A DNA stretch of 64,000 nt, from positions 1 through 64,000 of the forward strand of contig JAJZDX010000016.1 in NCBI GenBank assembly GCA_021805865.1, in the 5' to 3' direction. Shown one piece after another: positions 19,591 to 26,749 of the stretch. How positions within the stretch are numbered: the first letter of the stretch is position 1; every line of letters starts with the position of its first letter. Source of the DNA: Pseudomonadota bacterium. GTDB lineage: Bacteria > Pseudomonadota > Gammaproteobacteria > Steroidobacterales > Steroidobacteraceae. The translations under genes and the position numbers were made by a program. The notes under the pieces are model-generated. The model was not told the DNA's origin. It saw only the letters and a list, made by a program, of their open reading frames with translations, and searched no databases.

Positions 19591-20781
19591 TCATCGCGAC
19601 GCGGCCCATGCTGCGACCTCCGCCACGGCGGCAATCGCAGTGTCGATTTCCTGCTCCGTGTTGAAAGCGCCGATGGAGAAGCGGACGGTACCGCGTCGCG
19701 CCGCGGTGCCGATCCGCTTGTGCACCAGAGGCGCACATTGCAGGCCGGTACGGGTGGCGATGTCATGCTTGACATCAAGCCTGAGACCCACGTCGGCCGC
19801 ATCCAGGTCACCGACATTGAGCGAGATGGTTGACATGCGGTTTTTCAGGCTGTCACAACAGTAGAGTCGGACACCTGCGATTTCGCGAACCCCTTCGACG
19901 AAGCGCCGCGCCAGCCGCATCTCGCGTGCGTGGATATTCTCGATCCCGTCGGCTTGCAGCCACTCCTGCCCAGCCCAGAGGGCCGCGATGCCCAGCATGT
20001 TGATTGTGCCATACTCGAGCCGCCAGGGATAATCGGCGAGCTGAAAGGGATATTCGGAATTTACGCCGGTTCCACCCGCGCGCACCTGCCGAATCTCCAG
20101 GTGCCTGCGCACGCACAGCCCGCCGATGCCGGTCGCACCCATTAGCGATTTATGACCGGTGAACGCCAGCACGTCTACGTTCATCGCCTTCATGTCGATC
20201 GGCACCACGCCGGCGGTCTGTGAAACGTCGAGCGCGAAGGGGACGCCTCGTTCCCGGCAGATGCGGCCGATTTCGGCCACCGGCTGAATGGTGCCGACGA
20301 CATTGGAGCCGTGATTGACGATGACGAGGCGGGTGTTCGGGCGGATGGCGCGCGCGATGTCGTCCGGATCGACGAATCCCGCGTCATCGAAAGGTACAAA
20401 CGTGGCCTCCGCACCGCCGTCGCGCACCAGATGGTTGATCGGGCGGATCACAGAATTGTGCTCAAGCTCAGTTGTGACCACATGGTCGCCCGCGGATACC
20501 AGCCCGGGAATGATCAGGTTCAGGGCGTCGGTGGCGTTGTAGCCGAAGCACAGCCGCTCGGGCGTATCTTCGTCGCCGTGGAAGAACCGGGTCAGGCGCA
20601 ACCGCAGGTCGTCCAGCAATGTTTCCGCCTCGATGCCGAGTTCGTAACCGCTGCGCCCCGGGCTGACACCCGTGGAACGGTAGAAGTCGGTCATGAATCG
20701 GTAGACGCCTTCGGGCTTCGGCCACGAGGTCGAGGCGTTGTCGAGATATATCAGCTTCCGCCGCGCATCCATTTGGGTCAT
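19591..20781 (-). CDS. Cysteine desulfurase family protein (class V aminotransferase)
   Basis: YLDNASTSWPKPEGVY, FTGHKSLMGATGIGGL (PLP Lys), GLQCAPLVHKRIGTAARRGTVRFSIG. Confidence 0.85.
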   Translation of the reverse strand: MTQMDARRKLIYLDNASTSWPKPEGVYRFMTDFYRSTGVSPGRSGYELGIEAETLLDDLRLRLTRFFHGDEDTPERLCFGYNATDALNLIIPGLVSAGDHVVTTELEHNSVIRPINHLVRDGGAEATFVPFDDAGFVDPDDIARAIRPNTRLVIVNHGSNVVGTIQPVAEIGRICRERGVPFALDVSQTAGVVPIDMKAMNVDVLAFTGHKSLMGATGIGGLCVRRHLEIRQVRAGGTGVNSEYPFQLADYPWRLEYGTINMLGIAALWAGQEWLQADGIENIHAREMRLARRFVEGVREIAGVRLYCCDSLKNRMSTISLNVGDLDAADVGLRLDVKHDIATRTGLQCAPLVHKRIGTAARRGTVRFSIGAFNTEQEIDTAIAAVAEVAAWAASR

Positions 20782-21968
20782 GCCTCTTCATCCGCGAGCG
20801 TTTCGGGAAGGAACGGCAGAAGCTTCAGTGCGAACAGGGTGATGAACAGGGCGAGCGCGCAGCCGCCGAGTGCGAGGGCACACTCGGGCAGGCTCGGTGC
20901 GTAGAAGTTCACTACCCCGTCGTAGAAGGAGCTGGAGACGTGCATGCCGGGGAAGATCGACAGCGGCCAGGCCTGGCCGCCGATGATGATGTCGTACATG
21001 AGGGCGAGCCCTCCGACCACGACCGAGGCCGATCCCCAGCCAACCGCGGCGCGCGAGCGGCGCGTCTGCGGCAGCCAGAACAGCAGCATTGGCAGCGCTC
21101 CGCCCAGGAACACCGCCCCGAACCAGAAAAGGAACGTGTAGATCCCGCCGTCCCACAAGAGAAAGGCCTCGGCCCCGCGGAACTCGGCCTCGTAGAGCTT
21201 GGTGATGTGGAAGGCAAGCAGGAAGTAAAGAACGGCCGCCGCGAACACGCCCAGCAGGTTCTTCAGCCGCATCAGAATCTCATCGCCCAGCGATCGCCCG
21301 GTGCCCTTGAACACCGCCATCAGCACCAGAATGAAGATCGCCAGCCCGAAGGAGAAGGACATCCCGATGAACATCGGCGCCATGATCGCCTCGTCGTAGG
21401 GCTGGCGCGCCACCAGAAAGCCGAAGATCGAGCCGGTGCCCGTGGTCAGGATCAGCCGCCACAGGAAGGCGGCCGTACCGACCATGCGGGTGTAGCGGTT
21501 CAGCCGCCGCTCCATCATCACCCACAGATACCACCCGGTCACCGCCACAAAGCCGGTATAGAGGAAGATGTTCCAGGCAAAGATCGAGCGGAAATTGTAA
21601 TGCGTCATGGCGATGCCGAGGCGATCCGGCCGGCCGAGGTCGAGCACCAGGATCGCCAGTCCGCCGAGCAGCAGCGCGATGGCCAGCAGGCCGGACAAGC
21701 GCGCCAGCGGCTTGTACGCCACCTTGCCGAACACCGAGGCAATCGAAGCGGTATTGAGTGCGCCCGAGGCCGCCACGATCAGAAACACCGCGAACACATG
21801 CGGTACGCCCCAGACCACCTGGTTGGTCATGCCGGTGATGATGTGCCCGATGTGCGCCATGAAGTACGCCGCCGTCAGTCCCGCGGCCATGAGCACGGCC
21901 AGCAGCGCCGCCAGGCCCCAGAAGCCAGCGCTTTGCCCGTCGATCTCGCGGTAATGGATCGCGCTCAT
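20778..21968 (-). CDS. dsrP: DsrP/NrfD-like integral membrane subunit
   Basis: Polytopic NrfD/PsrC-like protein directly downstream of DsrO-like gene. Confidence 0.85.
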   Translation of the reverse strand: MSAIHYREIDGQSAGFWGLAALLAVLMAAGLTAAYFMAHIGHIITGMTNQVVWGVPHVFAVFLIVAASGALNTASIASVFGKVAYKPLARLSGLLAIALLLGGLAILVLDLGRPDRLGIAMTHYNFRSIFAWNIFLYTGFVAVTGWYLWVMMERRLNRYTRMVGTAAFLWRLILTTGTGSIFGFLVARQPYDEAIMAPMFIGMSFSFGLAIFILVLMAVFKGTGRSLGDEILMRLKNLLGVFAAAVLYFLLAFHITKLYEAEFRGAEAFLLWDGGIYTFLFWFGAVFLGGALPMLLFWLPQTRRSRAAVGWGSASVVVGGLALMYDIIIGGQAWPLSIFPGMHVSSSFYDGVVNFYAPSLPECALALGGCALALFITLFALKLLPFLPETLADEEA

Positions 21969-21971
21969 CGT

Positions 21972-22811
21972 CTAAAGTCCCTGATAATGCACGCCGGTAT
22001 CGAGCATCAGGTCGGCGCGCAATTGCACCGAAGGATGCTCGGCGAGGGCGCGGCGGATGGCGCTCCCGGGGTCCTTCAGATCCCCGAAAGTCATCGCCCC
22101 GCCGCCTTCGCGCGAACAGGCCTCCACGCAGGCCGGTATCTTGCCCGCATCGACGCGCGGCACGCACAGCGTGCACCCTTCCACCGTACCCTTGCCGCGG
22201 GGAGCCCACGGTTTCTGGTCGGTGAGGTTCTCACTGATGAACGAGCGCGCCTTGTACGGACAGGCCATCATGCAGAAGCGGCAACCGATGCAGATGTGCC
22301 GGTCCACCAGCACGATGCCGTCGGCCCGCCGGAAGGAGGCCCCGGTGGGGCAAACCTCGACGCAGGGCGCATTGCCACAATGCTGGCACATCACCGGCAC
22401 CGAGCGCGAAAAGCCCGTCTTCGGGTCACTCACCTGCACCTTGCGGATCCATTGCGCATCGGTGGGCCGGCCTTCATTCTTCCAGCCGTTATACGATGAG
22501 CACGCGCTGACGCAGGCGGTGCACGACGGCTTGCACCTGGTAGTGTCGATCAGCAGGCCCCAGCGCCTCTTCGAACTCGCCCCCGCCGCCCTGTTCCCGC
22601 CAGCTTCGGCATAGGCGAAGAGGCTCACCCCCGGTGCGAGCACCAACGCGCTCACCGCCGCGGCTCCTACGAATCGCCGTCGGACCTCATCGATCCCCTG
22701 CTCAGCGCGCCCGGGCACCGGGTGTTCCTCGTTACTCTGACCTTCCTGGGCCGCCCCCCTGCCGCGACGCGTCTTCGCCGCCTTCAACATCGGTCCCGGC
22801 GGCTGGCTCAT
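21972..22811 (-). CDS. dsrO: DsrO-like periplasmic ferredoxin with Tat signal
   Basis: RRRFVGAAAVSALVLAPG; multiple 4Fe-4S motifs CQHCGNAPCVEVCPTGA, CIGCRFCMMACPY. Confidence 0.85.
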   Translation of the reverse strand: MSQPPGPMLKAAKTRRGRGAAQEGQSNEEHPVPGRAEQGIDEVRRRFVGAAAVSALVLAPGVSLFAYAEAGGNRAAGASSKRRWGLLIDTTRCKPSCTACVSACSSYNGWKNEGRPTDAQWIRKVQVSDPKTGFSRSVPVMCQHCGNAPCVEVCPTGASFRRADGIVLVDRHICIGCRFCMMACPYKARSFISENLTDQKPWAPRGKGTVEGCTLCVPRVDAGKIPACVEACSREGGGAMTFGDLKDPGSAIRRALAEHPSVQLRADLMLDTGVHYQGL

Positions 22812-26348: not shown

Positions 26349-26353
26349 TGGAG

Positions 26354-26671
26354 CTACACGCAGCCGGTCGGCTTCGCCAGGCCGGCGACCTTACAGGCTC
26401 CCTTGGCCGGACCGGAGCGGAACAATTGATAGATCTGGTCGAGGTCCATCTTGTTGTCGCGGCAGACCTTGCGCACCATCGGCGCCACACCGTAGGAATA
26501 GAAATATTTGCGGATGTACTGAATCAGCTGCCAGTGCGGGGCCGTCAGTTCGGTGATTCCCTCGGTCAGCGCGAGATCACGCGCGACGTCCTCGTTCCAG
26601 AGTTCGGGCTCCTGAAGGAACCCATCGTCATCGACTTCATAGGTGCGGTCTTCAACCTTGTACGTGGGCAT
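26354..26671 (-). CDS. dsrC: DsrC (TusE/DsrC family) with both C-terminal redox cysteines
   Basis: Ends GPAKGACKVAGLAKPTGCV, i.e. Cys-x10... spacing Cys and penultimate Cys as in bona fide DsrC. Confidence 0.92.
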   Translation of the reverse strand: MPTYKVEDRTYEVDDDGFLQEPELWNEDVARDLALTEGITELTAPHWQLIQYIRKYFYSYGVAPMVRKVCRDNKMDLDQIYQLFRSGPAKGACKVAGLAKPTGCV

Positions 26672-26720
26672 GAATGGTCCCCATCTCTAGAACGTCGTAT
26701 GACTATATCATACTGTGTAT

Positions 26721-26749
26721 ATTATTATCATAATCTAAGTTGATGTCAA
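26721..26749 (-). promoter_or_regulatory. Sigma70-like promoter for dsrC-M-K-J-O-P operon (TTGACA-N17-AATAAT)
   Basis: Reverse complement reads TTGACATCAACTTAGATTATGATAATAAT, about 50 nt upstream of dsrC; in an AT-rich island within GC-rich DNA. Confidence 0.6.

What the first reader, a model, noticed from the sequence alone, without database searches (positions are those of the whole stretch)
19591..26749. Complete DsrC-DsrMKJOP operon without DsrAB, coupled to a cysteine desulfurase, inside a molybdoenzyme/aromatic island
Seen: eight tightly packed minus-strand genes (mostly ATGA or longer overlaps) in order dsrC, RsbRD-like, dsrM, dsrK, dsrJ, dsrO, dsrP, class V desulfurase, flanked by transhydroxylase-type genes. 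No dsrAB, aprAB or sat in the window. Established: DsrMKJOP exchanges electrons between quinone/periplasm and DsrC disulfide/trisulfide, normally with DsrAB. Inference: here the complex may serve DsrC persulfide from the desulfurase, or act as a thiol/quinone redox module balancing the polyphenol oxidoreductases, rather than sulfite reduction.
Basis: partly seen in the sequence, partly recalled or inferred. Interest (0 to 1): 0.82.

Follow-up and report, generated by a model that had tools for sequence, protein, structure and literature searches.

The report
DsrAB-free DsrC–DsrMKJOP polyphenol module
A sulfur-respiration membrane complex and its sulfur-carrier protein sit, without the sulfite reductase they normally serve, in a gene block shared by distantly related bacteria, next to a cysteine desulfurase and a molybdenum enzyme of aromatic-compound breakdown, which suggests the sulfur machinery has been re-used to move electrons for polyphenol metabolism.

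Summary
Window 19591-26671 (minus strand) encodes DsrC, DsrT (the "RsbRD-like" gene), DsrM, K, J, O, P and a TIGR01977 cysteine desulfurase, with all heme, Fe-S and sulfur-carrier residues kept. The genome (98.75% complete) has no dsrA, aprA or sat; its only sulfite-reductase-type gene looks assimilatory. The operon is not a local accident: the order DsrC-DsrT-DsrMKJOP-desulfurase-IclR-MoA-MoB recurs in the isolate Geobacter sp. AOG1 and in Pseudomonadota MAGs. Four of seven genomes with it lack dsrA, aprA and sat; in two others a separate oxidative-type dsrAB cluster lies on another contig. DsrK forms one clade nested in Acidobacteriaceae. In the window lineage DsrJOP were replaced by the host lineage's oxidative-type DsrJOP, so the operon is a chimera. 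The linked molybdoenzyme is a divergent relative of pyrogallol transhydroxylase; the clear transhydroxylase (Mo3) lies upstream. Most likely the desulfurase loads DsrC, and DsrC with DsrMKJOP works as a thiol/quinone relay for MoAB in polyphenol metabolism. Coupling and direction are inferred, not shown.

The parts
26354..26671 (-). dsrC (105 aa), both redox Cys (C93, C104) present
   Evidence: TIGR03342 3e-30, PF04358 3e-33; C93 and C104 invariant in 59 relatives
25881..26348 (-). dsrT (RsbRD_N domain protein between dsrC and dsrM)
   Evidence: PF14361 8e-8; same position in nearly all reductive-type loci; DsrT placed next to dsrM in PMC10504309
24883..25884 (-). dsrM, cytochrome b-type membrane subunit
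   Evidence: NF038037 417 bits, cut-off 300; six conserved His kept
23295..24905 (-). dsrK, HdrD-like catalytic Fe-S subunit
   Evidence: NF045796 715 bits, cut-off 400; conserved Cys kept; tree nests it in Acidobacteriaceae
22808..23302 (-). dsrJ, triheme cytochrome c, oxidative type
   Evidence: NF038038 70 bits, below cut-off 100; three CxxCH plus Cys45; 64-75% to rDSR DsrJ of the same family, at most 37% to reductive type
21972..22811 (-). dsrO, periplasmic Fe-S subunit, oxidative type
   Evidence: NF045797 291 bits, cut-off 200; 74-78% to same-family rDSR DsrO
20778..21968 (-). dsrP, NrfD-type membrane subunit, oxidative type
   Evidence: PF03916 2e-51; 89-90% to rDSR DsrP of the same family, about 24% to reductive type
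19591..20781 (-). cysteine desulfurase family protein (class V, TIGR01977)
   Evidence: TIGR01977 410 bits, cut-off 377; aligns along its length with solved desulfurases, Cys in RTGLQCAP at the SufS-type active-site position
18747..19505 (-). IclR-family regulator, conserved between desulfurase and MoA
   Evidence: IclR_C and HTH_IclR; start MNIQSV set by relatives; same place in L032, L034, L035, L164
16075..18693 (-). MoA copy 2 (Mo2A), Ser-ligand MopB enzyme, divergent relative of pyrogallol transhydroxylase
   Evidence: PF00384, PF01568, weak PF21423; PDB 4v4c E=1.5e-125; 80-82% ortholog in Geobacter
13103..15712 (-). MoA copy 1 (Mo1A), 98.5% DNA-identical tandem duplicate of Mo2A
12297..13106 (-). 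MoB, Fe-S subunit with carboxypeptidase-regulatory-like C-terminal domain
   Evidence: PF13247, PF13620; start from alignment with L164 MoB
33496..36102 (-). Mo3A, close relative of pyrogallol-phloroglucinol transhydroxylase large subunit
   Evidence: PDB 4v4c E=1.5e-264; directly upstream of dsrC in L033
32634..33485 (-). Mo3B, small subunit partner of Mo3A
   Evidence: PF13247, PF13620

Best explanation
This is a horizontally moved, DsrAB-free redox module. Shown: one gene block, DsrC-DsrT-DsrMKJOP-desulfurase-IclR-MoA-MoB, is conserved between Pseudomonadota (probably Steroidobacteraceae) and Geobacter, with intact cofactor and thiol residues, and four of seven genomes with it lack dsrA, aprA and sat. 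Inferred: the desulfurase takes sulfur from cysteine and loads it on DsrC Cys104; Cys93 resolves this to a disulfide or trisulfide; DsrK/DsrM exchange electrons with DsrC and pass them to or from quinone, and JOP connect to the quinone pool and periplasm. DsrC thereby serves as the soluble thiol carrier linking the cytoplasmic Mo/Fe-S enzyme MoAB, which modifies a polyphenol ring (hydroxylation or dehydroxylation), to the respiratory chain. The more likely direction is oxidative (aromatic substrate to MoAB to DsrC to DsrMKJOP to quinone), because hosts include an Fe(III) respirer and because the window lineage swapped in oxidative-type JOP.
For: Conserved block in Geobacter sp. AOG1 (L035), a Geobacter MAG (L034) and Pseudomonadota MAGs L032 and L164. 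No dsrA/aprA/sat in G000, G294, G295, G297. All DsrC, K, M, J redox residues kept. A two-Cys DsrC is, by PMC3397948, almost confined to organisms with DsrAB, so its retention here points to disulfide chemistry; the same paper shows IscS plus cysteine persulfurating A. vinosum DsrC at the terminal Cys in vitro. DsrC partners other than DsrAB have been proposed, such as FlxABCD-HdrABC (PMC6470260). In two of three Geobacter-phylum genomes with MoAB but no adjacent dsr, MoAB lies beside another NrfD/Fe-S/MopB complex. JOP were replaced rather than lost, so a working complex seems to be kept under selection. RhL, a relative in this enzyme class, hydroxylates resorcinol as a respiratory electron donor (PMC10100899).
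Against: No direct evidence joins DsrC to MoAB; MoAB also occurs without dsr, so it can use other partners. The substrate of MoA is unknown. The desulfurase could equally serve Fe-S assembly. Two module-bearing genomes also have a full oxidative dsrAB cluster, so a link with sulfur metabolism is not excluded there. Only seven module genomes were found; besides the window's own genome, five are MAGs and one is an isolate.
Confidence: 0.4

Rival explanations
1. Cysteine-driven sulfidogenic electron sink: the desulfurase loads DsrC, the persulfide is resolved to H2S plus a DsrC disulfide, and DsrMKJOP re-reduces DsrC with quinol. Net: cysteine plus quinol gives alanine plus H2S. MoAB is only a neighbour.
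For: Desulfurase directly follows dsrP in 6 of 6 covered module genomes; in vitro precedent for IscS loading DsrC; both DsrC Cys kept.
Against: Cysteine is a costly respiratory substrate; it does not explain the conserved IclR-MoAB linkage or the polyphenol surroundings.
Confidence: 0.15
2. The desulfurase is a local sulfur source for Fe-S cluster assembly of this Fe-S-rich operon (NifS-like role). DsrC-DsrMKJOP act as a plain disulfide/dithiol relay with no sulfane sulfur.
For: The operon encodes several Fe-S proteins (DsrK, DsrO, MoB); a 65%-identical desulfurase also lies beside dsr clusters in Acidobacteriaceae L036 and L047, whose genomes have dsrA, where Fe-S supply would also be useful.
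Against: Only 2 of 63 non-module dsrK loci with at least 4 kb downstream have it, though all have Fe-S-rich dsr operons; the overlap with dsrP suggests coupling to the complex.
Confidence: 0.2
3. The genome is really a Dsr sulfur oxidiser or sulfite reducer and dsrAB, aprA and sat fell in assembly gaps.
For: Same-genus G389/G292 and G337 have an oxidative dsr cluster and aprA-sat.
Against: 98.75% complete assembly; dsr and apr-sat lie on separate contigs in relatives and both are missing; the only own CysG copy is a distant 52% one near the CysI-like gene, not the dsr-linked copy; G295 is a one-scaffold isolate assembly reported as 99.95% complete that has the module and none of the three genes.
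Confidence: 0.05
4. The operon is a decaying relic of a dsr cluster carried along with an aromatic island.
For: dsrAB and accessory genes were lost relative to the Acidobacteriaceae source.
Against: All reading frames intact, all redox residues kept, JOP replaced by a compatible set, synteny kept across phyla.
Confidence: 0.05

Closest known systems
Reductive DsrABCT-MKJOP cluster of Acidobacteriaceae (e.g. SbA1 L047, bog_202 L036)
   Same: DsrK 76-78% identical, order dsrC-dsrT-dsrMKJOP, a 65% desulfurase nearby on the other strand
   Different: Those genomes have dsrA (and a dsrN-like gene in the cluster) and no MoAB next to the operon; the module has no dsrAB, the desulfurase inside the operon, and MoAB downstream
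Oxidative rDSR cluster of sulfur oxidisers (same-genus G337, A. vinosum type)
   Same: DsrJ, O, P of the window are 64-90% identical to these
   Different: Window DsrC, M, K are only 34-43% identical to them; no dsrA, aprA or sat in the window's genome
Pyrogallol-phloroglucinol transhydroxylase AthL/PgtL and resorcinol hydroxylase RhL
   Same: Same Ser-ligand MopB group, small Fe-S subunit with carboxypeptidase-regulatory-like domain; Mo3A is a close relative
   Different: Dsr-linked MoA keeps His144, Asp174 and Ser175 but not Tyr152, with no clear Tyr404 counterpart, and it travels with dsr genes. No RhL sequence was compared here
DsrC as redox partner of FlxABCD-HdrABC in Desulfovibrio
   Same: DsrC proposed as thiol carrier for an enzyme other than DsrAB (PMC6470260)
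   Different: There DsrAB is also present; here DsrC operates in genomes without DsrAB

Membership tests
DsrC (two-cysteine, TusE/DsrC family) | Penultimate Cys and preceding Cys of the C-terminal arm | tested here: met
   C104 and C93, invariant with 59 relatives
DsrMKJOP complex | All five subunits with heme and Fe-S ligands | tested here: met
DsrMKJOP complex | Oxidation or reduction of DsrC coupled to quinone | not testable with these tools
   biochemical assay needed
Dissimilatory sulfite/sulfate reduction system | DsrAB (and AprA, Sat) in the genome | tested here: not met
   TIGR02064, TIGR02061 and TIGR00339: no hit in own genome; only a CysI-like protein
Oxidative rDSR sulfur oxidation | DsrAB with oxidative-type DsrC, M, K | tested here: not met
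   no dsrA; DsrC, M, K are reductive type
Oxidative rDSR sulfur oxidation | DsrEFH and DsrL in the genome | not tested
   not in the operon; no genome-wide search was run for them
Cysteine desulfurase, TIGR01977 | Score over curated cut-off and active-site Cys | tested here: met
   410 bits against 377; RTGLQCAP aligned to the Cys segment of 5b7s
Pyrogallol transhydroxylase (AthL): Mo3A | High similarity and active-site residues His144, Tyr152, Asp174, Ser175, Tyr404 | tested here: met
   E=1.5e-264, all five aligned; residue roles recalled, not read
Pyrogallol transhydroxylase (AthL): Mo1A/Mo2A | Same active-site residues | tested here: not met
   Tyr152 replaced by Ser, no Tyr404 counterpart; filed only as a relative

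The most novel reading that the evidence does not exclude
DsrC and DsrMKJOP have been recruited away from sulfite metabolism as a thiol- or persulfide-mediated electron route between a molybdenum-dependent aromatic hydroxylase/dehydroxylase and the quinone pool, a mobile 'bacterial heterodisulfide' respiration of polyphenols.
Probability: 0.35. Interest if true: 0.82.

Novelty: new variant of a known kind. Interest (0 to 1): 0.63.

Why it matters
DsrC and DsrMKJOP are read in genomes and metagenomes as markers of sulfur respiration or oxidation. A mobile version without DsrAB, tied to polyphenol molybdoenzymes, would break that rule. It would also suggest how electrons from anaerobic polyphenol chemistry reach the respiratory chain, a point relevant to carbon storage in peat. 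A cultured strain (Geobacter sp. AOG1) carries the block, so the idea can be tested directly.

Tried and rejected
(1) Suspected that this DsrC lacks an insertion needed to bind DsrAB: rejected, since the relatives aligned, including those from dsrA-positive genomes, share the same length and tail. (2) orf15807 between Mo2A and Mo1A looked conserved in Geobacter: rejected as an out-of-frame shadow of the MoA end. (3) Own genome seemed to lack any sulfite reductase: corrected, a CysI-like protein with two NIR_SIR domains exists. (5) No paper found describing the module. The key DsrMKJOP biochemistry paper (PMC10861901) is not held, so mechanism statements about trisulfide reduction rest on secondary citation. 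(6) Catechol dehydroxylase identity for MoA: disfavoured, because those enzymes cluster away from the pyrogallol enzyme and near acetylene hydratase (PMC7028382), whereas MoA's best PDB match is the pyrogallol enzyme. (7) A MoA tree has long-branch problems and is not used as evidence. (8) Structure prediction was not run: sequence similarity to solved families was enough, and complexes cannot be modelled with the tool.
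Full report
OBSERVATION. The window carries eight compact minus-strand genes from 26671 down to 19591: dsrC, an RsbRD_N protein, dsrM, dsrK, dsrJ, dsrO, dsrP and a class V desulfurase. Neighbouring genes overlap by 4 to 23 nt or are spaced by at most 5 nt. The RsbRD_N gene fits DsrT: dsrT is described as adjacent to dsrM in reductive-type clusters (PMC10504309), and the homolog sits between dsrC and dsrM in nearly all reductive-type loci fetched here. The equation RsbRD_N = DsrT is my inference from position. 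All residues expected for function are kept: DsrC Cys93 and Cys104; the DsrK cluster and catalytic Cys; DsrM His; DsrJ three CxxCH plus Cys45; DsrO cluster Cys.

GENOME CONTEXT. The window is contig C18 of a 4.68 Mb, 98.75% complete, 0.09% contaminated assembly. dsrA, aprA and sat are absent, and only one DsrK is present. The single NIR_SIR protein is a 593-aa frame with two such domains, as in assimilatory CysI. The only CysG copy is near it and is just 52% identical to the CysG close to dsrA in the same-genus genome G337, so the whole oxidative dsr locus of the genus, not only dsrAB, is missing. In relatives dsr and apr-sat lie on different contigs; both being lost to assembly gaps is unlikely. 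The taxon is not named by the tools; hits named Steroidobacteraceae and Alphaproteobacteria and the class-wide pattern make a Steroidobacteraceae-like Pseudomonadota likely, not certain.

RECURRENCE. A scan of genome contigs with DsrK and tblastn of the neighbourhoods found the same block elsewhere. Geobacter sp. AOG1 (L035/G295, isolate, single scaffold reported 99.95% complete, PMC8567784) has dsrC-dsrT-dsrMKJOP-desulfurase-IclR-MoA-MoB. A Geobacter MAG (L034/G294) has the same order from dsrM on. Pseudomonadota MAGs L031 (G291), L032 (G292, apparently the same genome as same-genus G389), L033+L164 (G293) and L037 (G297, same as G346) carry it or the part their contigs reach. The desulfurase directly follows dsrP in all six genomes whose contigs cover that place. 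By contrast, only 2 of 63 other DsrK loci with at least 4 kb downstream hold a desulfurase over 50% identical (L036 and L047, both Acidobacteriaceae, on the opposite strand). In three Pseudomonadota genomes (window, G292, G293) the downstream surroundings are also shared: LuxR-type regulator, SDR and 3HCDH genes, with the cupin seen in the window and G292. In G293 the AthL-type pair Mo3AB lies directly upstream of dsrC. In the Geobacter MAG G294 the wider neighbourhood differs: TauE, B12 radical SAM, mutase, thiolase, CoA-transferase, OYE, and an AthLS-like pair 46-48% identical to Mo3AB. AOG1 has a similar set of mutase, thiolase, CoA-transferase and OYE-type genes downstream, read from the sequence.

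DSRAB STATUS. Seven genomes hold the module. G000, G294, G295 and G297 have no true dsrA, no aprA over cut-off and no sat. G291 has aprA and sat but no dsrA found. G292 and G293 have dsrA, aprA and sat, with dsrA in a separate oxidative-type cluster on another contig. Of the 30 genomes tested through their DsrK loci, 25 are over the dsrA cut-off: 23 of 24 non-module genomes, and 2 of 6 module genomes. G291, G293, G294 and G297 are MAGs, so their absences are weaker than that of G295.

ORIGIN AND CHIMERISM. In the DsrK tree the module rows form one group (SH-aLRT 93) nested among Acidobacteriaceae, including L036 and L047, which carry the desulfurase beside their dsr cluster. In the window lineage the operon is a chimera. 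DsrC, M and K are reductive type, 34-43% to the same-family oxidative proteins. DsrJ, O and P are 64-75%, 74-78% and 89-90% identical to the same-family oxidative cluster, against medians of 31, 37 and 24% to the reductive type; Geobacter keeps the reductive-type JOP. In the DsrP tree the window row falls with the oxidative DsrP of its own genus. Replacement rather than loss implies that the complete complex is needed.

MOLYBDOENZYMES. Mo3A matches the solved pyrogallol transhydroxylase at E=1.5e-264. The Dsr-linked MoA matches at 1.5e-125; it keeps the Mo-ligand Ser175, Asp174 and His144 but has Ser at Tyr152 and no counterpart of Tyr404, whereas Mo3A keeps all five (residue roles recalled). 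MoA is therefore a relative with an unknown reaction. It is rare: at a strict threshold, 1 of 399 genomes sampled from the window's phylum (the own genome), 4 of 398 of the Geobacter phylum and 1 of 396 Acidobacteriota at 52%. In three genomes of the Geobacter phylum MoAB pairs occur without adjacent dsr; in two of these they lie next to a MopB/NrfD/Fe-S complex. The window holds two 98.5% DNA-identical MoA copies in tandem but one MoB. Surrounding genes fit phloroglucinol breakdown by family (SDR, cyclase-family hydrolase, 3HCDH and BKACE as PGR, DPGC, TfD and TAL of PMC10470551), an assignment not tested further.

MECHANISM. Shown: conserved linkage, intact redox residues, independence from DsrAB in several genomes. 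Established elsewhere: IscS with cysteine persulfurates A. vinosum DsrC at its terminal Cys, and the second Cys is nearly confined to organisms with DsrAB, exceptions being few (PMC3397948); DsrMKJOP exchanges electrons with DsrC (PMC6470260, PMC10504309); DsrC has proposed partners besides DsrAB (PMC6470260). Inferred: the desulfurase loads DsrC, DsrC shuttles between MoAB and DsrMKJOP, and electrons run to quinone. The oxidative direction is favoured by the oxidative-type JOP and by an Fe(III)-reducing host, but not proven. The main rivals are a desulfurase for Fe-S assembly, and a cysteine-fed electron sink without MoAB.

NOVELTY. DsrMK without DsrAB is known in scattered genomes (PMC10504309 reports seven such assemblies in its basal clade). 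A complete DsrC-DsrT-MKJOP block with its own desulfurase, joined to a transhydroxylase-family enzyme and moved between phyla, was not found in the held literature. It is best called a new variant of a known kind: known parts, new and recurrent assembly, probable new role.

Noticed in passing
window 13103-15712 and 16075-18693: Two MoA copies in tandem, 98.5% DNA identity over 2.6 kb, with a single MoB: a very recent duplication or possible assembly effect; tandem MoAB pairs (older, diverged) also occur in Geobacter-phylum genomes L153-L155.
   Followed up: partly
window 27283-28965 and 31373-32386: TrpF-like protein, beta-RFAP synthase family protein (TIGR00144 258 bits, cut-off 113.5) and a PRPP synthetase lie between Mo3AB and dsrC; in G293 (L033) Mo3B is followed directly by dsrC, so this block appears inserted. 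It suggests a ribofuranosyl-(hydroxy)benzene or methanopterin-type cofactor route in a polyphenol island.
   Followed up: partly
window 7625-11327 and 45465-49607: Two gene sets (3HCDH, SDR, cupin, cyclase-family hydrolase; the second also BKACE) that fit the anaerobic phloroglucinol pathway of PMC10470551 by family.
   Followed up: partly
L036 16610-17932 and L047 18303-19574: In Acidobacteriaceae with dsrA a 65% identical desulfurase lies next to the dsrN-like gene on the opposite strand, a likely source of the module's desulfurase.
   Followed up: partly
L034 10224-11027: TauE/SafE-type exporter gene directly after MoB in the Geobacter MAG, possibly exporting a sulfur or organic anion.
   Followed up: no
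L064 781-1992: Acidobacteria MAG Ww172 has a second set of DsrJ/O/P-like genes (30, 48, 32% to the window's) upstream of its dsr cluster.
   Followed up: no
window 42774-44414 and 3097-4938: Two thiamine-diphosphate enzymes of the acetolactate-synthase type in the aromatic island, role unknown; possibly ring-dione cleavage.
   Followed up: no
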